Shown here: piece by piece, positions 22,853 through 51,146 of the stretch
Layout: the number at the start of each line of letters is the position of its first letter
How positions within the stretch are numbered: the first letter of the stretch is position 1
DNA from: Pseudoroseomonas ludipueritiae
Lineage (GTDB): Bacteria; Pseudomonadota; Alphaproteobacteria; Acetobacterales; Acetobacteraceae
Length of the DNA: 64,000 nucleotides
NCBI RefSeq assembly: GCF_014490445.1
Contig: NZ_JACTUZ010000009.1
Location: forward strand, 19,879 to 83,878
Direction of reading: 5' to 3'
Notes under the pieces: model-generated
The model's input: the letters and a program-made list of their open reading frames with translations, nothing else
Told to the model about the DNA's origin: nothing
Databases searched by the model: none
Position numbers and translations under genes: made by a program

Positions 22853-23932
22853 TCACCCTAGGAAGAGAGGCCACATCAACGGCGCCATCGGGCAGGTAAT
22901 GCATGGGCCGCCCGAGCGCACCTCTGGTCGGTGCGCCGATGTGTCAGGGTTCCAAGGCCATTCGTCCGCCTCCACGGGTAGCCATCTGCGCCTGCGGTGC
23001 GTTCGCCGCCCCTGCCCTTCATCCCTAACCGAGAACCGCTCGTACGCGGTGAACCGGCGCATCGGGGGCTCAACCCGGCGCCCATAGATGCTCTCGCAAA
23101 GGAAGGCACACTCGGCCGCCTGCGCGTCCTCCGCCACGTCGATGTACCAGGCCCTGGGGTGCCCGTTGGCGTCGCCATTCCTCCGATAGCCCCGCGCCTT
23201 CAGGGTGTCCTTGTGATGAAACGGCGCCTCCATCGCCCAGATGCGCCAACTCGGGCGCCGGGCGCCCTCCAGCAGCCGGGCCAGGCCGGTGACGCCGGAG
23301 CGGAGCAGCGGCCGCTCAAGGATTTGCAGCGTCGCCTCGCAGTCGTGCACGGCGCGGTGGCCGTCGAAGAACAGCCCCTGCTTCATGGCCAGGTAGCCTA
23401 GCCTGCCGCCATCGAAGCCTTCGGCTGCCCAGTCGACCCCCTGCAGCGAGCAGGCCCAGGGCTTCGCCACGAAGGCGTCGCAGAAGACTTCGGAGAACCG
23501 GCGGTCGAAGCTGGCGTTGTGGGCGATCACGAGGGCCACCGGTTCGATGAACCGCGCCACCTCGGCGGGGTCGATGCTGTGCCCGGCTACCATCTCGTCG
23601 GTCAGGCCGGTCAGCTCAGTGACGGCAGACGGGATGGGAACGGACGGCTGGCGCAGCTGACTGAACGCCTCCCCCACCGCGTAGACCGTGCCGTCCAGCC
23701 CGTAGGTGAAGGGCAGTATGGCCATCTCGATGATCTCGTCCCGCAGCGGGTCGAGGCCGGTGGTCTCGAGGTCCAGGAGGATGCCGACGCGGGTCCGAGT
23801 ACCGGCGGGAACCTCCAAGGGTTCGTGGGCGCCGACCCGGCGCAGCACGCGATATTGCCCGCTGGCCTCGAGCAGTGCCGCCATTTCCTTGAGCTGACTG
23901 GGATTGGGTCCGGGTATCACGTCACGCGGCAT
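22853..23932 (-). CDS. 3'-5' exonuclease, DnaQ-like (DEDDh)
   Basis: A 359-residue exonuclease-domain protein. ExoI is LDLETTGLDP (about residues 53-62), ExoII is IAHNASFDRRF (about 136), and ExoIII is HRAVHDCEA with the DEDDh histidine. A second domain (residues 225-305) containing WYIDVAEDAQAAECAFLCESIY is often fused to this class in alphaproteobacteria. Homology seems to end at RRFTAYERFSVR. The last ~50 residues are Arg/Trp/Pro-rich and look like read-through past an ancestral stop. It probably processes DNA ends in repair rather than serving the replicase. Confidence 0.85.
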   Translation of the reverse strand: MPRDVIPGPNPSQLKEMAALLEASGQYRVLRRVGAHEPLEVPAGTRTRVGILLDLETTGLDPLRDEIIEMAILPFTYGLDGTVYAVGEAFSQLRQPSVPIPSAVTELTGLTDEMVAGHSIDPAEVARFIEPVALVIAHNASFDRRFSEVFCDAFVAKPWACSLQGVDWAAEGFDGGRLGYLAMKQGLFFDGHRAVHDCEATLQILERPLLRSGVTGLARLLEGARRPSWRIWAMEAPFHHKDTLKARGYRRNGDANGHPRAWYIDVAEDAQAAECAFLCESIYGRRVEPPMRRFTAYERFSVRDEGQGRRTHRRRRWLPVEADEWPWNPDTSAHRPEVRSGGPCITCPMAPLMWPLFLG

Positions 23933-23998
23933 GCTGTTTCCATGTCCTGCAGCGCCTCCATGAGCCAGTGGACCAGAAGGGGAACAGGCGCCTGGCGG

Positions 23999-24367
23999 CT
24001 ACCCGTCTGCCTGCGGCGCCCCCAGTCCCAGCTCCTGCCGGACATGGGCGAACTGCGCCGGGTCCAGCCCGCGGCGCTGCGCCGCCAGCCAGCGCAGCGC
24101 CTCCAGACCCTCCTCCGTGAAGTGGGCGCGGGCCATGTGCGGCGATCCGGCGCGCACCACCATCAGGCCGCGGTCCACCATGCTCTGCACCGCCGCCGGA
24201 ACCTTCGGCTGACCGGCCAGCGGACCGCTGCGCCACACCCGCAGGAAGATGCCTTCGGCCAGTGCTGGCGGGCGGCCGAAGCGCACGCACAGCTCGCGCC
24301 GGATTAGGTCTCGTTCCGCGGCGTTCAGGAGTTCGGTCGGGCGATCGGAGGTGGGCGAAGGAGGCAT
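23999..24367 (-). CDS. Conserved hypothetical protein
   Basis: A 122-residue basic protein with no recognised domain. The sequence is compact and helical (ELLNAAERDLIRRELCVRFG, FTEEGLEALRWLAAQRRGL) and could be a small winged-helix-like protein. The ATG at 24367 is chosen because the upstream 65 codons look non-coding and overlap the divergent secreted-protein gene. It lies 66 nt upstream of the exonuclease gene on the same strand and may be co-transcribed with it. Confidence 0.6.
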   Translation of the reverse strand: MPPSPTSDRPTELLNAAERDLIRRELCVRFGRPPALAEGIFLRVWRSGPLAGQPKVPAAVQSMVDRGLMVVRAGSPHMARAHFTEEGLEALRWLAAQRRGLDPAQFAHVRQELGLGAPQADG

Positions 24368-24507: not shown

Positions 24508-24834
24508 ATGCGTCGGGCTGCTGTGTTGATGATGACGGCGATTGCCCTGAGCACGGTCGCACTGGCTCCGTCGGGCGTGTCGGCGGCGCCGGTCAGAAGT
24601 ATCCTGGCTAGCGAGGCGAGTTCGCTCCACAAGGTGCAGTACTGGGACCAGCGCCCGTACGACGGCGGTTGGGAACGGCGCCAGCAGTGGCGCGAGTGGC
24701 GCCGGGAACGTGACGAGGCCCGCATTGCCGAGGCCGCGCGGCGCGAGGCGTGGCGCATCGAGCAGGAGCGTGAGCAACGCCGGGCATGGCGCTATCAGAA
24801 CGGCTACGGCCCGCGTTACGAACGCGGCTGGTGA
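24508..24834 (+). CDS. Small secreted Arg/Trp/Glu-rich protein
   Basis: A 108-residue protein with a clear signal peptide (AAVLMMTAIALSTVALAPSGVSAAP) and a mature part dominated by an R/E/W/A-rich helix (REWRRERDEARIAEAARREA) ending in a Tyr/Gly-rich tail. GGAGG lies 5 nt before the ATG at 24508; an ATG at 24496 would add four residues. Similar small charged exported proteins are frequent in Acetobacteraceae and Methylobacteria, with unknown function. Confidence 0.75.
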   Translation: MRRAAVLMMTAIALSTVALAPSGVSAAPVRSILASEASSLHKVQYWDQRPYDGGWERRQQWREWRRERDEARIAEAARREAWRIEQEREQRRAWRYQNGYGPRYERGW

Positions 24835-24972
24835 CTGGGAGTTCGGCGCTGCAGCCGCAGCTCCGCTCGCCCGCCAAGTCGAGCTCCGGCGCGCGCCACG
24901 GCCCTGGCGAAGCGCCATGGCAGCTGACGAGGTATCAGTTCCAGCAGGCGAGGCTGGACTGCCTGGGACAGG

Positions 24973-25749
24973 ATGTGCTGCGTTGGTGTCGGGAAAGACG
25001 ATCATGGGCGAGCGCTCCGGCAGCAGCGCCTTGCGATTAGATATTCGCGGCGGCATCACCAAGGAATCTGCCTCGTCTTCCGCCGCCGATCCAGTCGATA
25101 CGCTTCGGGCCGCAGAAGTAGCGATAGGTGGGGCACGCCGCCTGCGGAAGCGCGGCAGGCCAGCCACCACCGCTTCCTCGGCGGCGAACTGCATCGCGAG
25201 TTCATCGACCTCTCCCGGCGTCGCGCCTGCCCGGCCTGCCTGGCTCAGGTGCCGGTCCATCTGGTCGCCTGGGACTGCGCCCTGGTCACCGCCTGCCCCC
25301 GCCATAGCATGCGCCTCGTGGATAGATGCCACAGACCTCGGTGCCGGGGCCTGGGCTGGAACGGCACCGAGATCGTTCGCTGCGCCTGCGGCACCGACCT
25401 GCGCACGCTCGTCAGAAGCCCGGTCGACGCCGCCGAGACGGAGGCGAACGCGCGGGTGCTGGCGCTGGCCACCGGCGAGGCGGTTCCATGGCTACCCCAC
25501 GCACTTTCGGCCGTGGGCCCCGCCGACCTCGTGCGCCTCGTCATGGTCACCGGCATGTTCCTGACCGGCTGGCGCAAGGAAAGACGCATCGAGACCCTGG
25601 TGGCGTCGGGACCGGACGCCGTCGCCCGCGTCATCGCCGAGGGCCTGCGCGCGGTCGAGGGCTGGCCCGGACCCCTGCAACGTTTCCTTGAGACGGCGCG
25701 GGCCGCTTCGGCGCCAGCAAGGCATTGGGCGCCTACTACGGCTGGCTGA
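24973..25749 (+). pseudogene. TniQ-like protein, N-terminal piece of a frameshifted gene
   Basis: Recognisable TniQ-like sequence begins near 25180 (LGGELHREFIDLSRRRACPACLA). The zinc-binding cysteines follow: CPAC, then CPRHSMRLVDRCHRPRC and CACGTDLR. After RFLETARAAS at about 25715 the frame is lost, and the continuation ALGAYYGWLTMLEAG is found in the next frame. One missing base near 25715-25725 would join this piece to the 25725-26720 frame. The first ~70 residues do not look like a TniQ N-terminus, so the gene is probably also truncated at its 5' end. TniQ proteins act in target selection of Tn7/Mu-like transposition, but stand-alone paralogues of unknown role also exist. Confidence 0.65.
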
Positions 25750-26807: not shown

Positions 26808-27431
26808 CTACTCAGCCAGCCAGGCGACCAGAGCACTGATGTTCACGGCGAAGTCGCGACCTTCACCCGGCCCACCTTTGTGGATGACCCCGATGACGCC
26901 GCTGGCGCTGTCGAGAAGAGGACCGCCGGACATGCCCTGGGTCAGCTTCTGCGAAACTTCGATGAGCCTTTTCTCGGGCCTGACGGCGAGGGATTGAACC
27001 TTACCTTCCCTGACATTGAGGCTGTCCCCAGGCCGGAACCCCGGGTAGCCGACTGCCACCGTCGCATCTCCGGTCGCAGCCGGACGCGGTGACATTTCAA
27101 GCTCGAAGAACTCCGTTTGTGGTATGCTATGGCTGAGGATGGCGAGGTCGCGGTCAACATCGACCTTCATCACCGTGGCAGTGAACATGTTGGCCCGCTT
27201 GCTCGGGTGGAACACTTCGACTTCCTTCGCGCTCTCTACGCAGTGGGCAGCCGTGACCAGCCCGACGTCCTTCAGGAAGAAAGCGGTGCCCTGGAGTTCG
27301 TCGCCTTGTTCGTTATAGACGTTGTCGAGGATCCAAACCGATCTATCACGCAATTCGGCCGACGTGGGCACAACGGCAATCGTGCGATCCGGGAAGCTCT
27401 TGTTGAACCGCAATGCAACGGAGCGGAACAT
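26808..27431 (-). pseudogene. Trypsin-like serine protease, C-terminal part of a retron RT fusion
   Basis: This frame encodes a chymotrypsin-fold protease. It has LVTAAHCVES (His), DVDRDLAILSH (Asp) and TQGMSGGPLLD (Ser), plus GVIGVIHKGG. All three catalytic residues are present. There is no signal peptide, so it is cytoplasmic. Upstream codons in the same frame extend homology (ISWLRYIRGQTDPMFRSVALRFNKSF) back to about 27480, and before that the sequence continues in another frame with RT C-terminal sequence. It is best read as the C-terminal domain of the RT gene starting at 28461, separated by single-base deletions near 27485 and 27710. RT-protease fusions are a described retron architecture. 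Confidence 0.75.
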
Positions 27432-27681
27432 AGGGTCGGTCTGGCCCCTGATATAACGGAGCCAAGAGATCTTGCCCTCAAGTGCGCGACGAGGTTGGAC
27501 CTGCCACCATGCTCATCCACGAACTTCTTCTGCGCGTCCTTGAAGCCCAGCGTCTCCACGGAGTGGAGCGCTGCCCGAAGGTTCCGGACGTACCGGCGGT
27601 CAACGTTGAGCAGTTCATTGACCTTCAGGCCCGTGACGGCCTTCCGCGAATGCCGGTCGGCGTAGTGCGCCTTGGACGGGT

Positions 27682-28461
27682 TCAGACCAAAACCATTGCT
27701 GACGAGGCGAGGTGGAAGTCGGAAGCCAGAAGGTCGGGCGAGAACTGCCCCGTAGGCGGCACCGGACCTTCGAACAGCGCCGTCATCGGCTGATGGCTCG
27801 AGAAGGTGATGTCGTCGGCGTAGCGCGTGTAGATGCAGCGTGCTCCCTTCGCGACGGCCATCAACTCCTTGTCCATGCGGAAGTAAATCATGTTCGAGAG
27901 CACGGGGCTGGTCGGCGCGCCCTGTGGCAAGTGGCCGCTATGGCAGCAAAGCCGCGTGATGATGTCCGCCACGCGTTCGCTGATGCCAAGGAAACGGAGG
28001 ACACCGGCGACCCTGTTCTCGGTGATCGAAGGAAAAAAGTCTGCGAGATCGAGGTTGAGCAGAAAACGCCTTCGCAGGTGTGCCTGCGCGTTCGTCTTCA
28101 CCGACCTCGCTTGAACGAAGCCGTGGACCGGGTTCCGCACGCGGTAGAGCTGGTCGAGCAGCAGGGCGATGCGCCTCTGCAGATGCTTGAGGCGCTCGTT
28201 GGGTGCATGGATGACCCTGGTCTTGCCCTTCCCTTTGGCGATGTCGAAGCGCTTGTACATGCGCCTGCGGAACCACCAGATTTTCCTCAACTCGTTGTCC
28301 GACATGCTGAGGTATTCGAGAAGCGCCGCTTCGCTGGACAGTTCGGGAAGCGGGGAGGCCTTAACAGCGAAGGCACCAAATCCGGACCCGAGCACGAGGT
28401 CTCCCTTCCAGTCACGCCAGGATGTCGCATAGGACGTGGCGCGCACGACATGTGCAGACAT
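27682..28461 (-). pseudogene. Retron-type reverse transcriptase, N-terminal piece of RT-protease gene
   Basis: This 259-residue frame holds RT motifs 1-5. These include KTRVIHAPNERLKHLQRRI, the retron NAxxH signature in SVKTNAQAHLRR, LNLDLADFFPSI, GHLPQGAPTSPVLSN and the catalytic YTRYADDITFS. After SPDLLASDF the frame stops. The rest of the RT (NGFGLNPSKAHYADRHSRK, then VTGLKVNELLNVDRRYV with the retron VTG motif) continues in the next frame to about 27485, and then passes to the protease frame. Two single-base deletions explain this. If repaired, the product would be about 550 residues. Retrons make msDNA and act as anti-phage systems. Confidence 0.82.
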
Positions 28462-28625
28462 TAACTCTTACGCCGCAGTTGCTACAGCGCGTATGCGAGG
28501 GGATACCTCGTCTCCGCGTGCTTACCAGACGAATCGCGCGCCATCTACTCGGGTTAGCCGGATGAGGTGTCCGCGACAAGTTAGCCACCGCTGGCCAAGC
28601 CTAGACCTGAGGGTTTCCTAGATTG
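28462..28625 (-). ncRNA. Candidate retron msr-msd region
   Basis: Retron non-coding RNA genes normally lie just upstream of the RT. This 164-nt gap before the RT start has no ORF but contains minus-strand hairpins. TTGGCCA-GCGG-TGGCTAA (28581-28598) pairs fully only as minus-strand RNA, through a G-U pair. CGAGG/CCTCG (28496-28510) sits inside CGCG/CGCG (28488-28518). A direct repeat GGCTAAC also occurs. No convincing a1/a2 pair was identified, so exact boundaries are unknown. Confidence 0.35.
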
Positions 28626-28673: not shown

Positions 28674-30683
28674 CTAATGGCTTGCTATGACGCCCAGCGA
28701 CAGCCCGGACGTCTCCGCCAGGTAGGTTTCCGTCGCCGCCAGAAGCTCCAGGTGCTCGCCTTCGGCCAATGCCCGCGACAGCCCCGGCTGCACGATGAAC
28801 ACGGCGAACTCGCGCTCGGCGCTGCGGAGCCTGCCCTCCAGCTTCCGCAGGGCGGCCATGTCCCCCCGCTCGAACCGGCTCGGGGCCGCGCGTGCCAGGC
28901 GCTTGCCCTCGCGTGACTGCAGGTGGCGGAACAGCGCCTCGGCATCGTCCCGCCAGCGAACGCACTTCTGCGCCTGCCCACAAACCACGTACAGGTCGTC
29001 GAGCCTCGCACCCGGCTTAGCCCCTTCGGAGTACTTGCAGTGGTAGAGGTGCACGACGATGCGGTCGGGCGTGTCCCTGATGGCAACCACGTCGGCGGCC
29101 TCACCCGCATCGTCGTCGTCGAAGACGATGTCGAAAGCCTCGTCCCCCGTCTGCGCGAGCAGGTGCCGGATCACCTTATGCTGCACGGAGTCGGGGCGCT
29201 TCTGCGCCTTCTGCGACTCCTTGCGGATGTCGGTGCCCGTCCAGTCCCACGCGGCGATCCGCTCGCGGGAGTACGGGATGCGCGTGGCCATGCCCTGGGG
29301 AGAGAACAACTCGTTGGCGAGCAGCACCGCGCCATTCGCGAAGTGGACCCAGGGCGAGTTGTCCGCCAGCCAGTCGCCGAGCGGCGTGCGCCTGCCGCCG
29401 ACGTTGATGTAGGCCGGTGGGCCGCCCGCCGGAACGTAGCGGACGCCGTTCGCCCCGAACCGGAACTCGAAATCGGCGGATCTGGAGTCGTCGCCGACGG
29501 CCACAGTCACCCGGAGCTTCAGCGGGCCGCTGTCCGTGCGCTCCGCCGGGCCGAGCTCAACATCGAACAGCTGCGCGGATGCGTCGCCGATCTCGATGGT
29601 GACGAGGTGCTCCGGCCTCTTGAGCAGCTTTTGGTCCCACTCGATGAACATGGGCACGAGCCGCGGCCGCTCCGTCACCTCGGTCGGCACCATGGCCCGA
29701 CGGAAGATGTCATCCGGCTGGATCGTGTCGTCGAGCAGCTTTGCGCCGACGTGGCGGCACCAAGCCACCCATTCGGACATGTCGTGGGCCACGAGGTAGG
29801 ACCACAGCCTGCCCTTGCGGGAGTACCCGACCGTCACCTTGCTACCAGCCTCGTACCCGACGCCGAACAGGTTCGACCTGATCCTGTTGCCGATCGTCGC
29901 CTCGGTCACGGCGCGGGCGGCGTCGGAGCCGGAATGCATCGAGAACCTCACCGCCCGGCCGATGGTGTGGTTCAGGCCGAGGTTCATCAAAAGCAGCCGG
30001 TTGATGCCGTGCAGGCAACGGAACACGCGGTCGCCGCTGATGACGGCGACGTCGTCGCCGCAAACCGCCTTCGCCAGGCCCTCGTGTAGCGTGGCATTGT
30101 CGGAGCTGTTGATGAACAGCAGGCCGCGGTCCTGATCCCAGTGCAGCAGGTACAGGTGCCAGACCGTGTTGGAGACCTCCTTCACGGCGCCCCAGGGCAC
30201 CGCCTCCTGCTCCTGGGTGACGAAAACCAGGGTGCGACGCCCCGCATTGACCATCGGTCCCGCATGGATGCGGGCCCGCTTGCGGAGGGCCTCCTCAGCC
30301 CGGCCCGGCGACCATGCCGCGCATCGGGTTCGGTAGACCACGGCGCTCATCTTGGGAAAGACGTTCTGCAGCGCGATGGGCGACTCTGGGCCCGTGAAGC
30401 CGTCGAGGAACTCGGAACGGCGCGTGTGGCGCCCGACTGCCCCGGAGCTCAACTCGGTCAGCAGCCGGTTCCAATCGGCGTCCTCGGCGTAGAGGTCCCG
30501 CAGCCGGTCCTCCATGTCAGGGCTGGCGACATTGGCGACCACCGTCGCCCGCCCCAGTTCCTTGTGCGCGCGGGTGAAGCGGCCGGTGAACTGGAGCGTG
30601 ATGGCGAGGCTCTTGTGGGGGGCGTGGATGGCCGCGATCTTGAGGTTGGGGTAGTCGAACCCCTCCCGAGCATGTTCACGCAC
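28674..30683 (-). pseudogene. DEAD/DEAH helicase, C-terminal piece with nuclease-like domain
   Basis: The first codons after the frame junction (EGFDYPNLKIAAIHAPHK, then SLAITLQFTGRFTRA) are helicase motifs V and VI (QFTGRFTR). About 350 residues of unrecognised sequence follow. Near the C-terminus, DEAFDIVFDDDDAGEAADVV followed by IVVHLYHCKYS resembles a PD-(D/E)xK nuclease core in which the usual E-x-K is H-C-K. Together with the N-terminal piece the product would be about 1,100 residues, a helicase-nuclease size seen among restriction and phage-defence proteins. The TAG stop at 28674 lies 213 nt before the RT start on the same strand. Confidence 0.72.
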
Positions 30684-31996
30684 ACGATGACCCGCGCTTT
30701 CCCTTCGCGCAGCCGCGCCAGCGCCTCGATGCGCTCGGCCTCCGGCATCCTGCTGTGGACCAGGGTGGGCCCGTGCTCCGGCGCCAGCGCCTCGTAGACC
30801 TGGATGACCTCCTTTGCGCGTTCGATGTCCTCGGTCCGCGCCATGACGACGTGGCGGTACCCGGCACCGATGTCGGCCTCAAGCTGCTCGATGGCGGCGG
30901 CGGCGATCGCCTCATCCGCGGACGGCCGGTCCCAAGCCATCACGCTCCTCAGGTTGATCGGGACGAAATAGCCGTCGGCCTGCGCCTTCGACAGCGGGTA
31001 GCTGAAGATGACCCGCCCCTCCACCAGTTTGCCGTCGTTCCGGAACGGCGTCGCCGTGAAGCTCAGTAGCCTATTGCGGGACTGCGCCAGGAACAGCTTG
31101 CGAAAGGCGTCCCAGGTCGGCGCGGGCGCGTGGTGCGCCTCGTCGATGAACAGGACGCCGCAGAGCTGCGCGATGCGCTCCTGCACCTCGGGTTCGCACC
31201 CCTGCAGCACCTGCATGTTCGCGACCACCACGTTGCAGCGGAGAAAGAGCTTCTCCGCCTCCTCGACGGTGCGGGGCCTGTGCTTGAGGGTGCCCACGAC
31301 CGGATACTGGGCGCTCTCAGCCAGGACGCCGAGGGTGCGCAGCAGCCCGAAGGTTTTGAACTTCTCCGCGATCTGCCGCCTGAGCGCGGTGCTGGGCACG
31401 ACCACCAGGAGCCGGTTCATCCTCTCGCGCGCCATGATCGCGAGCATGGTCTCGGTCTTCCCGGTGTCTGTCGGCATGACCACGGTGGCCGGATCCCCGA
31501 TTCCCCGCCAGTGAGCCAGGGCCGCGTACAGGGCACCGACCTGCGGTGGCCGCAATCCTTGCGCCAGCAACTCCCGTCTCGCGTCCCGGGTTTCCTCGCG
31601 GAAGGTGAACGCATCCGCCCACGAACTCCTCGCGGCAGCCGCCGCCCCGCCCGGGGCCTGCCAAGCCGCGGCGGCCGTGCTGACCTTGGTCCAAGCCGCG
31701 TCGAGCTCTTCGGACAGCGCCCCCGGGTCAGCGGACAGGCTGCCGGGCCTGCACACCAGAACCTGCTCGAATCCTTCATCCCCCTTGGGCTTCCGCTCGA
31801 GCAGCAGGGTGGACCCGCTCCCCTCGATGTCTAGGGCGAGGCCGTCCGGCGCCCCCGGGGCGTTCAGGCGGCGGGCGGCGACCGTGGCGTTCCGGGGCAG
31901 GTGGAGCAGCTGGCGGATGGGGTTCCCGGCAACCTGCTCGTCTACGGCGTACTGGGGCGGCAGCTTCAACCGGTCGCCAATCTTCAGCTCAGCCAT
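30458..31996 (-). pseudogene. DEAD/DEAH helicase, N-terminal piece
   Basis: The SF2 helicase core starts near residue 170. Walker A is MPTDTGKTETM, motif II is VLFIDEAHHAPA, and motif III is SFTATPFRND. RecA2 proceeds to ARVIVCVNMLG. At about 30667 the DNA reads ctcgggaggggttc where ctcggggaggggttc would give MLGEGFDYPN; one missing G throws the frame off, and the codons down to 30458 are meaningless. The ATG at 31996 (MAELKIGDRLKLPPQY) is the probable start. It is divergent from the intact TniQ-like gene, with a 214-bp spacer. Confidence 0.75.
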
Positions 31997-32210
31997 CGAG
32001 GACCCCGCGCGCGACCGCGCCCAGGATGGGCCGCCAGCAGCCGAAAGGATGCCCAAGCTCATCCTCGTTTTCTACTTAGAATTGATCACCCTCGGCATCG
32101 CTGTCGCTGTGCCAGCAGCCACTGGGTGTGCGGATACAGGGGACGGGTGCCGGTATCTTCCTCACCCGCCGATCGACTGCAGGCGCCTCTGCCCTGTAGA
32201 CTCCGGCTCC

Positions 32211-33272
32211 ATGCCGCCACCACCTCAGCCACGCATGCCTGCCCAGGACGAGCCACGGCCGCATAGCCTCGGCCTCGAGCCCTCCCCAGACGAGAGCCTC
32301 CAGAGCTACGTCTTCCGGCTCGCTCGCAGGCGCCGGACGGAACCGCCCCATGCCTTGGCGATCCGCCTCGGCTGGGCCCGTCTCGCAACCCGGGTGCGGC
32401 GCGATGTGGTGGAACGGCTTGCCCGGGAGGCTCAGGTTCCCCTCAAATCCTTGTTGCCGCTCTGGCGTGGCGACCCAGACAACTCGCACGTCCTGTTCTG
32501 GAACCGCAGGCTCCCCGTCAGTGCCTTGGACTGGCGATCGGGCGCCGGGCGCAAGGTCTGCCCTGAATGCTTGGCTGAGTTCGGGCGGCATCTCGCCGTC
32601 TGGGATCTGTCCTTCGTCTCCGCCTGCCCGATCCATCGCGCGGCGCTTGTGGACACCTGCCTTGCATGCAAGCTCCCGCTCAGCTGGAAAGGAGACGATG
32701 TGGCTTGGTGCGGCTGCGCGGCGGGCGGCGACCTGAGAAGGATTCGGGCGGCGCCAGTCACGCTCGAGCAGGCCCACGCCACCGCCTGCGTCCAAGGCAT
32801 GCTGGGCGACCCGCGGTTCGCGTCCGAGGGTGCCGAGGCGCTCGCGCGGCCGCCGTTCCAGAATATGACGCCGGGCCGGGCCGTCGAGTTCCTGGTCCGT
32901 CTTGGGCTCGACGCAGTCGCGACCCGCCCGCGCCGCCAGCCCTTCGCCTTCGAGCGGCTCGGAGACTACGACGTGCCGCCGCACGAGTCGCTAGCGCGCG
33001 CCTTGGCAGCGGTGGGCAACTGGCCAACCGGGTTCCCCGCCGTCCTGGACCACCTTCGGCGACACCATGTCACAGATGTGGGGGAAGCGACACGACGCGT
33101 GACCACGCCGGTCGTACGCTGGGTGACCCATGTGTCGGGTGGTGGCGGAAAGGAGATCCGGAGGGCGGTGGCGGAGTACAGGCGGGCGACGCGGGCACTG
33201 CCTGGATACGTATCGTGGCACGACAAGCGGAAGGCCCGGGCGGCGGCCATACGCTCCGACGGCGAGGAGTGA
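32211..33272 (+). CDS. TniQ-like protein
   Basis: A 353-residue TniQ-family protein. The N-terminal LEPSPDESLQSYVFRLARRR is typical, followed by VLFWNRRLPVSALDWRSGAG. Zinc-finger cysteines are in KVCPECLAEFGRH, ACPIHRAALVDTCLACKLPL and WCGCAAGGDLRR. Unlike the frameshifted paralogue at 25 kb it is intact and ends sooner. No transposase, TnsB/TnsC-like or end repeats were seen, so a transposition role is not supported locally. It bounds the retron/helicase island. Confidence 0.8.
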   Translation: MPPPPQPRMPAQDEPRPHSLGLEPSPDESLQSYVFRLARRRRTEPPHALAIRLGWARLATRVRRDVVERLAREAQVPLKSLLPLWRGDPDNSHVLFWNRRLPVSALDWRSGAGRKVCPECLAEFGRHLAVWDLSFVSACPIHRAALVDTCLACKLPLSWKGDDVAWCGCAAGGDLRRIRAAPVTLEQAHATACVQGMLGDPRFASEGAEALARPPFQNMTPGRAVEFLVRLGLDAVATRPRRQPFAFERLGDYDVPPHESLARALAAVGNWPTGFPAVLDHLRRHHVTDVGEATRRVTTPVVRWVTHVSGGGGKEIRRAVAEYRRATRALPGYVSWHDKRKARAAAIRSDGEE

Positions 33273-34052
33273 ACTGGCGGCGGCTTGTGTTCGTGACGAT
33301 GCCGCCCGCCTGCCGGGGAAGATTGGCCCACCCTCGCTACGTGACCACCGGGACTTGAAGCGGAGCCGCTGCAAAAGCTGGCGCCGGTGACTGCTCCAGG
33401 CTGCGTCGGCCGGCATGGCAGCAAGCACGTTTGTCGGTTCCGTAAATCACTGGAAACTCAAGAAGAAATGCTAGTCTTGGAAATGGCGCACGAACACTCG
33501 GCCAGTCCGTTCTTTCTCGCCTGCCTGTCCAAGGAACCTGAAGGCTCCGTGGGTGCGGAACAAGGACTTAGGGCTGGCCGAGTCTCTCTATAGGAGCGCG
33601 GTTACACTGATTCGTCGGCGAGTACCTCGTCAAGCCGCAGCTCCAGTTGCTCCACCTCGCCCGTCAGCCGTTCAGAGGAGCGGCCGAACTGCTCGTGCCG
33701 CAGCCGCGCGATCCGCACCCGCAACGGCGCCGCTGCATGACGCTGACCACCTCAGTCCGTGAACCGTCCGGCAACGCCCCTATCCTACGCGTAAGGGCGG
33801 CAACGGACACCTACCACACCCAACAGTTCCGCAGGCCAGCCCAACACCACCCCGCGCCGCAAGGCAGCCGAGAGAAGACGCTGACTCGGCGGAGGCACGC
33901 GGGGTTTCGGTTCAGCCAGCCGCCAGATAGATCGTCCACGGACGCATGGCGGTCCGCTCGCAGCGCCTCACTCCTTTATAGGAAGCCTCGAACCCGAACG
34001 ACGGCAGCCCCGCCGACAATGACAGGCCGACGGGCGGCAAATCATCACAGGG
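33273..34052. other. 780-bp gene-poor stretch with an IS66 relic
   Basis: Only the IS66 TnpC fragment at 33602-33740 is recognisable here. The remainder has short frames without motifs and is probably island-edge debris. Confidence 0.5.
33602..33740 (-). pseudogene. IS66-family transposase (TnpC) N-terminal fragment
   Basis: Translating the minus strand gives RIARLRHEQFGRSSERLTG followed by EVEQLELRLDEVLADESV and TAA. The QFGRSSE motif and the QLE helix are hallmarks of the IS66 TnpC N-terminus. Only about 45 codons remain; the catalytic DDE domain is absent. Confidence 0.7.
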
Positions 34053-50180: not shown

Positions 50181-51146
50181 ATGATGAACCGCCGCCTGCT
50201 GCTGGCTGCCACCGCCGGCGCCATGACCCTGCCCCTCGCCGCTCCGCATGTGGCGCGTGCCCAGGGCATGCCCAAGATCACGATCGGCATGTCCGGCTGG
50301 ACCGGCTTCGCACCCCTGACGCTGGCTGAGCAGGCCGGGCTGTTCAAGGCCGCCGGCGTGGAGGTCGAGACCAAGTTCGTGCCGCAGCGGGAGCGGAATC
50401 TCGCCCTCGCCTCCGGCGCGCTGAACTGCGTCGTCACCACCGTGGACACCATGATCCTCTGGGGCAGCACCATGCCGCTGGTACAGGTGCTGGTACTGGA
50501 CAAGTCCAGGGGCGGCGATGGCATCGCGGTGCGCCCCAATATCGGTGGCTGGGCGGATGTAAAGGGCAAGACCTTCGCCGTCGATGGCGCCGGCACCACG
50601 CCCTATTTCGTGCTGGCCTATATGCTGCGCGAGAACGGCATCCATATCCGCGACGTGAAGACCGCCACCCTGGCGCCGCAGCCCGCGGCCCAGGCCTTCG
50701 TGGCCGGGCAGTTCGACGGCTGCTCGACCTACGAGCCCTATCTCTCCTCCATCCGCTCCATGCCCGCCGACAAGGGGCGCATCCTGGCCACCACCAACGA
50801 CCACCCCTGCGTGGTGGATACCCTGGCCTTCACGCCGGATTTCGTGGCCAAGAACGAGGCCGCCGTGCGCGCCGTGGTGAAGGGCTGGAACGCCGCGCTG
50901 GAGATGATCAGGAACGAGCCCGACAAGTCCTTCGAGATCATGGGCAAGCGCGTCAATCAGACCGCTGAGGCCTTCAAGGCCAGCGCCGAGTTCATCGACT
51001 GGCAGGATGCGGGGGAGAACAAGGCCTATGTCGCCGGCGGCCTGCAGGAATTCATGGGCAAGGCGCTGGAAGTGCTGAAGGAGAGCGGCGTGGTGCGCAA
51101 CGCGCCCGATCTCTCGAAGCTCCTGGACACGCGTTTCGTGGCCTGA
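50181..51146 (+). CDS. ABC transporter substrate-binding protein (NitT/TauT/SsuA type)
   Basis: A 321-residue periplasmic receptor with a twin-arginine-like leader (MMNRRLLLAATAGAMTLPLA). The mature N-terminus is ITIGMSGWTGFAPLTLAEQA, then GLFKAAGVEVE, the common start of nitrate/sulfonate/taurine receptors. It is followed 4 nt later by a permease and then an ATPase, making a complete import operon. The ligand cannot be told from sequence. Confidence 0.92.
   Translation: MMNRRLLLAATAGAMTLPLAAPHVARAQGMPKITIGMSGWTGFAPLTLAEQAGLFKAAGVEVETKFVPQRERNLALASGALNCVVTTVDTMILWGSTMPLVQVLVLDKSRGGDGIAVRPNIGGWADVKGKTFAVDGAGTTPYFVLAYMLRENGIHIRDVKTATLAPQPAAQAFVAGQFDGCSTYEPYLSSIRSMPADKGRILATTNDHPCVVDTLAFTPDFVAKNEAAVRAVVKGWNAALEMIRNEPDKSFEIMGKRVNQTAEAFKASAEFIDWQDAGENKAYVAGGLQEFMGKALEVLKESGVVRNAPDLSKLLDTRFVA

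What the first reader, a model, noticed from the sequence alone, without database searches (positions are those of the whole stretch)
26808..28461. Retron reverse transcriptase fused to a trypsin-like protease, split by two single-base deletions
The RT piece has NAxxH, YADD and (in the next frame) VTG motifs of retron RTs. The C-terminal piece has a complete His-Asp-Ser protease triad. The three collinear frames are -1 shifted near 27710 and 27485. Retron RT-protease fusions are a described but little-studied architecture; how the protease is triggered is not known to me.
Basis: partly seen in the sequence, partly recalled or inferred. Interest (0 to 1): 0.85.

Follow-up and report, generated by a model that had tools for sequence, protein, structure and literature searches.

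The report
Broken type XI retron with ncRNA
This is a known kind of bacterial anti-phage element, a retron whose reverse transcriptase is fused to a protease, present here as a broken copy; its RNA template was found as well, and in it the repeat that the enzyme needs also carries the gene's own start signal.

Summary
Minus-strand 28395-26808 is a retron reverse transcriptase (RT) fused to a trypsin-like serine protease, read in three collinear frames; both halves match PADLOC type XI (RT-Protease_XI). It is one net base short at two places against six intact relatives; 68 distinct relatives keep both domains in one ORF. Two things were missed. (1) The ATG at 28461 is not the start: 28394-28511 is the msr-msd RNA (a1:a2 helix, msr hairpin, variable msd hairpin), supported by covariation (12 pairs changed on both sides against 3.9 in shuffles). 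(2) In all 20 distinct loci carrying this RNA, an in-frame start codon (GTG in 19, ATG in 1) and a Shine-Dalgarno-like sequence lie inside a2, so template folding and translation compete for the same bases. The frame breaks cluster in the retron and the adjacent helicase, and 6 of 18 full-length loci of this clade are broken at different sites: probably recent decay of a costly gene, but local sequence error is not excluded. No conserved partner gene was found. Most likely mechanism (inferred): msDNA restrains the protease until a phage disturbs it. Known kind; the start-in-a2 layout is the interesting part.

The parts
28394..28511 (-). msr-msd non-coding RNA of the retron (outer limits of a1 to a2)
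   Evidence: found in 20 distinct loci directly upstream of the RT; 94.3% of cells paired, 12 pairs with changes on both sides (0/500 shuffles)
28500..28511 (-). a1 arm (5' repeat); the helix extends inward to about 28494
28393..28405 (-). a2 arm (3' repeat), holding Shine-Dalgarno GGGAG (28401-28405) and start codon GTG (28393-28395)
28496..28496 (-). invariant bulged G next to the a1:a2 helix: candidate priming guanosine (inference)
   Evidence: column 20 of A4 is G in 20 of 20; known retrons prime from a conserved G adjacent to a1/a2 (PMC8989520 passage)
28470..28490 (-). msr hairpin (helix 2)
   Evidence: 99.3% of cells paired, 2 pairs changed on both sides
28414..28442 (-). msd hairpin with variable loop (helix 3)
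   Evidence: 81.7% of cells paired, 3 pairs changed on both sides
27705..28395 (-). RT piece, frame 1 (start GTG at 28395; frame stays open to 27682)
27476..27706 (-). RT C-terminal/linker piece, frame 2 (VTG at 27629-27637)
   Evidence: profile 214-291 of RT-Protease_XI; codon-usage scan
26808..27491 (-). protease piece, frame 3, with H/D/S triad; stop at 26808-26810
   Evidence: triad columns invariant in 35 of 35 aligned intact homologues

Best explanation
A type XI retron: one gene for an RT fused to a trypsin-like protease, preceded by its msr-msd RNA, in a genome of the same GTDB family as Roseococcus (Acetobacterales). The copy here is interrupted by two frame changes and as written cannot make the full fusion (shown from sequence; whether mutation or sequence error is undecided, mutation about 65%). 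Working copies probably act like the RT-Toprim fusion Retron-Eco2: the RT reverse-transcribes the msd part, the msDNA-bound protein keeps its effector, here the protease, idle, and phage damage to or binding of the msDNA frees it to cut host or phage proteins and stop growth (inferred, about 60%). In this clade the a2 repeat also holds the ribosome-binding site and start codon, so a transcript folded as template should not start translation at that site. This probably limits protease production and may let bound RT repress its own synthesis (anatomy shown; regulation inferred, about 50%).
For: Both halves match RT-Protease_XI. Fusion intact in 68 distinct relatives. Triad H, D, S invariant and YADD invariant or nearly so in 35 aligned homologues. 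ncRNA beside the RT in 20 distinct loci with covariation. In-frame start codon at the end of a2 in 20 of 20 distinct loci; in 6 of them no other in-frame ATG, GTG or TTG lies upstream of it in the open stretch; the record of the Haematobacter plasmid starts its CDS at that GTG. SD-like sequence (a lenient list of 4-mers) in a2 in 20 of 20; mean unpaired probability 0.11 (SD) and 0.07 (start) against 0.34 and 0.38 for 96 ordinary genes of the window's genome, of which 1 of 96 is as closed as the clade mean. Apart from the RT-protease (72 of 73 loci), no neighbour family recurs in more than 7 of 73 loci; the member of that family that I scanned is a serine recombinase. Retron-Eco2 is a self-inhibited RT-effector fusion triggered by phage DenB (PMC12405507, abstract and passages).
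Against: No msDNA, protease or defence measurement exists here. No structure could be predicted, so protease caging is untested. In the window copy itself SD and start are only moderately closed (0.29 and 0.34); 20 of 96 ordinary genes are at least that closed. Starts close to a2 occur in other retron-like loci too: an in-frame ATG or GTG within a2 or at most 5 nt past it in 3 of 30, against 12 of 30 distant type XI loci (repeats found de novo, starts assumed, sequences related). The R1 model does not find the RNA in distant type XI loci apart from one weak hit. By a loose count this genome has as many unexplained frame changes elsewhere (15 in 302 kb) as in the window (3 in 64 kb).
Confidence: 0.8

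Rival explanations
1. The two frame changes are errors of the assembly, and the organism has an intact type XI retron.
For: Genome is a draft of 394 contigs. All catalytic motifs are kept and the three pieces are still 71, 61 and 64% identical to the Haematobacter relative, so loss is recent or absent. A loose count finds unexplained frame changes at the same rate elsewhere in the genome: 15 in 302 kb against 3 in the 64-kb window, though 12 of the 15 leave the old frame open by less than 100 nt and many of these look like gene junctions.
Against: In the window, 16 of 20 same-strand frame changes close at a stop within 17 nt of the boundary; the exceptions are the two in the retron, one in the neighbouring helicase and a weak one at 25691. 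Breaks that leave the old frame open by more than 100 nt: 3 in 302 kb elsewhere, 2 in the window, both within the retron and helicase. Three breaks by chance in those two genes: 7e-4, post hoc and ignoring 25691.
Confidence: 0.33
2. Programmed frameshifting joins the three frames on purpose.
For: Both changes have the same sense and keep order and spacing of the domains.
Against: 68 distinct relatives are in one frame. The 5 other broken members of the clade break at different places, 3 of them by an in-frame stop. The adjacent helicase is broken as well.
Confidence: 0.02
3. The a1:a2/start-codon overlap is only a space-saving coincidence with no regulatory effect.
For: Retron RNAs commonly sit close to the RT start: in 17 of the 26 non-XI loci with a strong repeat and an ATG or GTG found, the first lies 11-33 nt past a2 (list). 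Unfolding by the ribosome could make pairing irrelevant. The window copy is only moderately closed.
Against: Exactly the same position in 20 of 20 distinct loci with GTG kept in 19 and compensatory changes within the helix; SD and start on average far less accessible than in 96 ordinary genes.
Confidence: 0.4
4. The protease is part of a nuclease-protease pair as in Hachiman, Avs, Lamassu and DRT systems (PMC12799240).
For: Weak matches of the protease piece to Avs1b, HamA1 and LmuA profiles.
Against: There the protease is N-terminal and an MBL-fold nuclease lies upstream (PMC12799240 passages). Here it is C-terminal; the neighbours scanned in the window are helicase, HTH and TniQ, and no neighbour family is widely shared.
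Confidence: 0.05

Closest known systems
Type XI retron (PADLOC RT-Protease_XI; Mestre et al. 2020 classification, paper not held, recalled)
   Same: Retron RT with C-terminal trypsin-like protease in one gene; both halves match the profiles.
   Different: This copy is interrupted. The RNA found here has no Rfam match; whether Mestre et al. or PADLOC's RNA models already cover it could not be checked.
Retron-Eco2 (RT-Toprim fusion; type I-C by recall)
   Same: Single RT-effector fusion plus ncRNA; the best solved chains are Retron Ec67 protein (9lm3, 9i2f; E 1.2e-91, RT half; Ec67 = Eco2 by recall); effector held off by msDNA (PMC12405507).
   Different: Effector is an RNase Toprim, not a protease.
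HtrA/MarP-type trypsin-like proteases
   Same: Protease half matches MarP family (2e-17) and HtrA (2e-9); solved HtrA chains align with the same half.
   Different: All below NCBIfam cut-offs; fused to an RT.
RT-TIR (type XII) retrons
   Same: RT piece also scores high against RT-TIR_XII (4.3e-70).
   Different: Effector is TIR, not protease.

Membership tests
Type XI retron | Retron-type RT with NAxxH, YADD, VTG | tested here: met
   VTG in the second frame
Type XI retron | C-terminal trypsin-like protease in the same polypeptide | tested here: inconclusive
   Collinear and matching 287-505 of the profile but in another frame; fused in one frame in 68 distinct relatives
Type XI retron | msr-msd RNA with a1/a2 repeats upstream of the RT | tested here: met
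Type XI retron | No separate effector gene | tested here: met
   besides the RT-protease, no neighbour family in more than 7 of 73 loci (ORFs of 80 aa or more, flanks about 6 kb at most, many cut by contig ends)
Type XI retron | Production of msDNA from a primed guanosine | not testable with these tools
   Only a candidate G (28496) by conservation
Type XI retron | Anti-phage activity | not testable with these tools
   none
Programmed frameshift gene | Frame change at a conserved site in homologues | tested here: not met
Nuclease-protease pair | MBL-fold nuclease gene upstream, protease at the N-terminus | tested here: not met
   neighbours in the window; protease C-terminal; definition

The most novel reading that the evidence does not exclude
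In this retron clade one RNA element is both the reverse-transcription template and a translational switch: the a2 repeat that the RT needs for priming is also the ribosome-binding site and start codon, so each transcript is either template or message, RT binding shuts off new protease, and anything that opens the a1:a2 helix (a phage nuclease or helicase) would raise protease synthesis at the moment of infection, a second sensing route beside msDNA loss.
Probability: 0.3. Interest if true: 0.7.

Novelty: new member of a known kind. Interest (0 to 1): 0.42.

Why it matters
In the listings of nine searches of the held papers I saw no experimental study of a type XI retron (the library is partial and most listed papers were not opened). 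This report supplies a compact RNA model for one clade, a set of intact relatives to test, a corrected start codon, and a simple hypothesis on how a potentially harmful protease is kept in check by its own template RNA.

Tried and rejected
Rfam: no match. ARAGORN reported a tRNA-Gly inside the protease gene; it lies in a conserved coding stretch and is taken as a false positive. Homology of the upstream helicase pieces to the helicase beside the Haematobacter retron: none. A common partner gene: none. Programmed frameshifting: rejected. Consensus promoter or terminator near the RNA: none found. The RNA model in distant type XI loci: no match but a weak one in L064 (E 0.77); in 385 sampled genomes of the class, own included, only the window's own. 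An empty site for the island: the two flanks lie on different contigs in the relatives fetched, so none could be shown. A first count of starts near a2, made by eye (13 of 30 and 5 of 30; the Fisher p of 0.047 belongs to it), is replaced by the scripted count (12 of 30 and 3 of 30). For both I gave 52 type XI and 66 other loci, leaving out L048, L053, L086, L098, L110, L114, L116, L138 and, among viral loci, most that looked like duplicates.

Full report
What is there. On the minus strand, 28461-27682 is an ORF with an RT domain (Pfam RVT_1, 2.5e-17) and 27431-26808 one with a trypsin-like domain (Trypsin_2, 1.6e-21). Against PADLOC-DB the RT piece best matches RT-Protease_XI (8.9e-85, profile 5-203 of 510) and the protease piece the C-terminal part of the same family (4.5e-51, profile 307-505 of 506). 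A six-frame search of the genome places three collinear matches, 4-196, 214-291 and 287-505 of 506, in three frames. It is the only RVT_1 match in the genome.

Frame changes. A codon-usage scan of the window gives frame changes at about 27705 and 27481. Of 20 same-strand frame changes in the window, 16 close at a stop within 17 nt of the boundary, as gene junctions do (one of them, at 51142, without an ATG or GTG beside it). The other four are the two in the retron, one at about 30666 in the upstream helicase gene, and a weak one at 25691. In the automatic count the change at 27705 passed as a junction, because its old frame closes 23 nt later and CTG/TTG starts were allowed; homology shows that it is a break. 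In 20 other stretches of the genome (302 kb) that count gives 15 unexplained changes, 3 of them with the old frame open for more than 100 nt; in the window it gives 3, of which 2 are of the long kind. So the window as a whole is not richer in such changes than the rest, which speaks for error or noise; what stands out is that the long ones and the 27705 break fall in two adjacent genes (7e-4 by chance, post hoc). Against six intact relatives the window is one net base short in each of the two regions. I favour real decay, at about 65%.

Relatives. The one relative seen in the window's GTDB family is Roseococcus (L028, identical to the G278 locus L002); NCBI puts that genus in Roseomonadaceae, Acetobacterales. 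Of four reference proteins the window's pieces score best with Haematobacter L037 (71, 61 and 64% identity). Full-length RT-protease genes in the close clade: 12 distinct intact and 6 interrupted (window, L036, L041, L044, L062, L104); in the distant set 56 distinct intact and 3 interrupted (L027, L086, L098) (duplicates; Fisher p 0.004, though sequences are related and several genomes are drafts). L038 (contig end) and L039 (protease half missing) are not counted. The interruptions fall at different places; L036, L044 and L104 have one in-frame stop each. Frequent independent loss suggests a costly or toxic gene (inference). In an alignment of 35 intact proteins the triad H383, D415, S488 is invariant, as are Y193, D195 and D196 of YADD; A194 is nearly so.

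The RNA. Aligning the DNA upstream of the gene in the window and two relatives showed a block of about 118 bases much more alike than its flanks. A profile search found it in the close clade, an alignment of 20 loci gives 74% mean column identity, and a covariance model built from these 20 finds 21 of 96 sources on the coding strand, all just upstream of the RT and one of them a duplicate; the remaining hits are the opposite strand of the same places and one weak one. Since all 21 went into the model or equal a row of it, this search adds mainly the negative result for distant loci. The structure has a 17-pair a1:a2 helix, a 7-pair msr hairpin and a 6-pair msd hairpin with a variable loop: 94.3% of cells paired, 12 pairs with changes on both sides against 3.9 in shuffles (0 of 500), and sliding the partners drops pairing to 34.5-47.8%. 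The structure was derived from these rows, which favours it; the double changes are the main independent support. The window RNA alone folds only modestly better than shuffles (z -1.99, 7 of 200 as good). An invariant bulged G beside the helix (28496) is a candidate primer, since known retrons prime from a conserved G adjacent to a1/a2 (PMC8989520, passage seen).

Start codon in a2. In each of the 20 distinct loci (21 rows) an in-frame start codon sits at the same place at the end of a2: GTG in 19, ATG in L104. In 6 distinct loci no other in-frame ATG, GTG or TTG lies upstream of it in the open stretch (L022/L037, L038, L029, L062, L030, L056). The record of the Haematobacter plasmid annotates the gene from that GTG. 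A lenient SD-like pattern lies in a2 in 20 of 20. With 40 downstream bases, mean unpaired probability is 0.11 for the SD and 0.07 for the start, against 0.34 and 0.38 for 96 ordinary genes of the same genome chosen for having an SD-like site. The window copy, whose a1 has a mismatch, is at 0.29 and 0.34, and 20 of the 96 genes are at least that closed. In distant type XI loci with a strong repeat, an in-frame ATG or GTG lies within a2 or at most 5 nt past it in 12 of 30 (52 examined), against 3 of 30 (66 examined) for other retron-like RTs. So close spacing is common in retrons and tightest here.

Surroundings. Upstream lies a ResIII-type helicase gene, itself interrupted; its C-terminal part has no Pfam, PADLOC or NCBIfam match. 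TniQ-family genes stand on both sides (24973-25749, 31605-33272; 30% identical over 174 residues). Similarity to the genus members fetched stops at 34052 or 34155 on the right, and on the left covers 23028-24323 and 24766-24835; the two sides lie on different contigs. The RNA model found nothing in 384 other sampled genomes of the class (stricter filters): sporadic, as expected of a mobile defence gene.

Function. No neighbour family besides the RT-protease is shared by more than 7 of 73 loci; the one member of that family that I scanned is a serine recombinase. The system therefore looks like one gene and one RNA, with the protease as effector. The nearest studied design is Retron-Eco2, an RT-Toprim fusion whose msDNA complex is self-inhibited and is set off by phage DenB (PMC12405507, abstract and passages). 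I infer the same logic with proteolysis as the output. The substrate is unknown. That step, msDNA synthesis and defence are not shown here.

Literature. PMC12548924 (passages) states 13 retron types and that PADLOC identifies effector, ncRNA and RT genes, present in most types; the word 'protease' does not occur in its main text. PMC13405049 and PMC8867640 were seen as passages, PMC12799240 as passages. The type XI label comes from PADLOC; the classification paper (Mestre 2020) is not held, so whether this RNA is already predicted there is unknown. The listing showed no title or abstract on a start codon inside a2; its papers were not opened, and the library is partial.

Verdict. A real, correctly recognised but broken type XI retron; ordinary in kind. 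The RNA and the start-in-a2 layout are the parts worth following.

Noticed in passing
28677-32062 (-): ResIII/DEAD helicase gene interrupted at about 30666; its C-terminal part has no family match but holds a stretch that by eye resembles a PD-(D/E)XK nuclease (recalled motif).
   Followed up: partly
24973-25749 and 31605-33272 (+): Two diverged TniQ-family genes flank the retron-helicase island; the left one matches only the C-terminal part of the domain.
   Followed up: partly
26976-27066 (-): ARAGORN tRNA-Gly call inside the protease coding region, probably false.
   Followed up: no
L026 5944-8589: Phaeobacter plasmid copy of the fusion lies between two IS3 transposase genes with the same protein accession, and its protease end is cut.
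   Followed up: no
L022: Haematobacter copy is on a conjugative plasmid beside an OLD-type nuclease and a UvrD helicase (Gabija-like, recalled).
   Followed up: no
L035/L108: The Breoghania copy lies on a contig also listed in IMG/VR, so it may sit in or near a prophage.
   Followed up: no
L064 3588-3701: Weak match (E 0.77) of the RNA model upstream of an Enterococcus type XI gene: possibly a distant form of the same RNA.
   Followed up: no
L054, L057, L074: In three Pseudomonas type XI loci the putative a2 overlaps the start ATG and first codons (repeats of L057 and L074 are weaker), perhaps a second clade with the start inside the repeat.
   Followed up: partly
34052: Right-hand similarity to genus members stops abruptly here.
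   Followed up: partly
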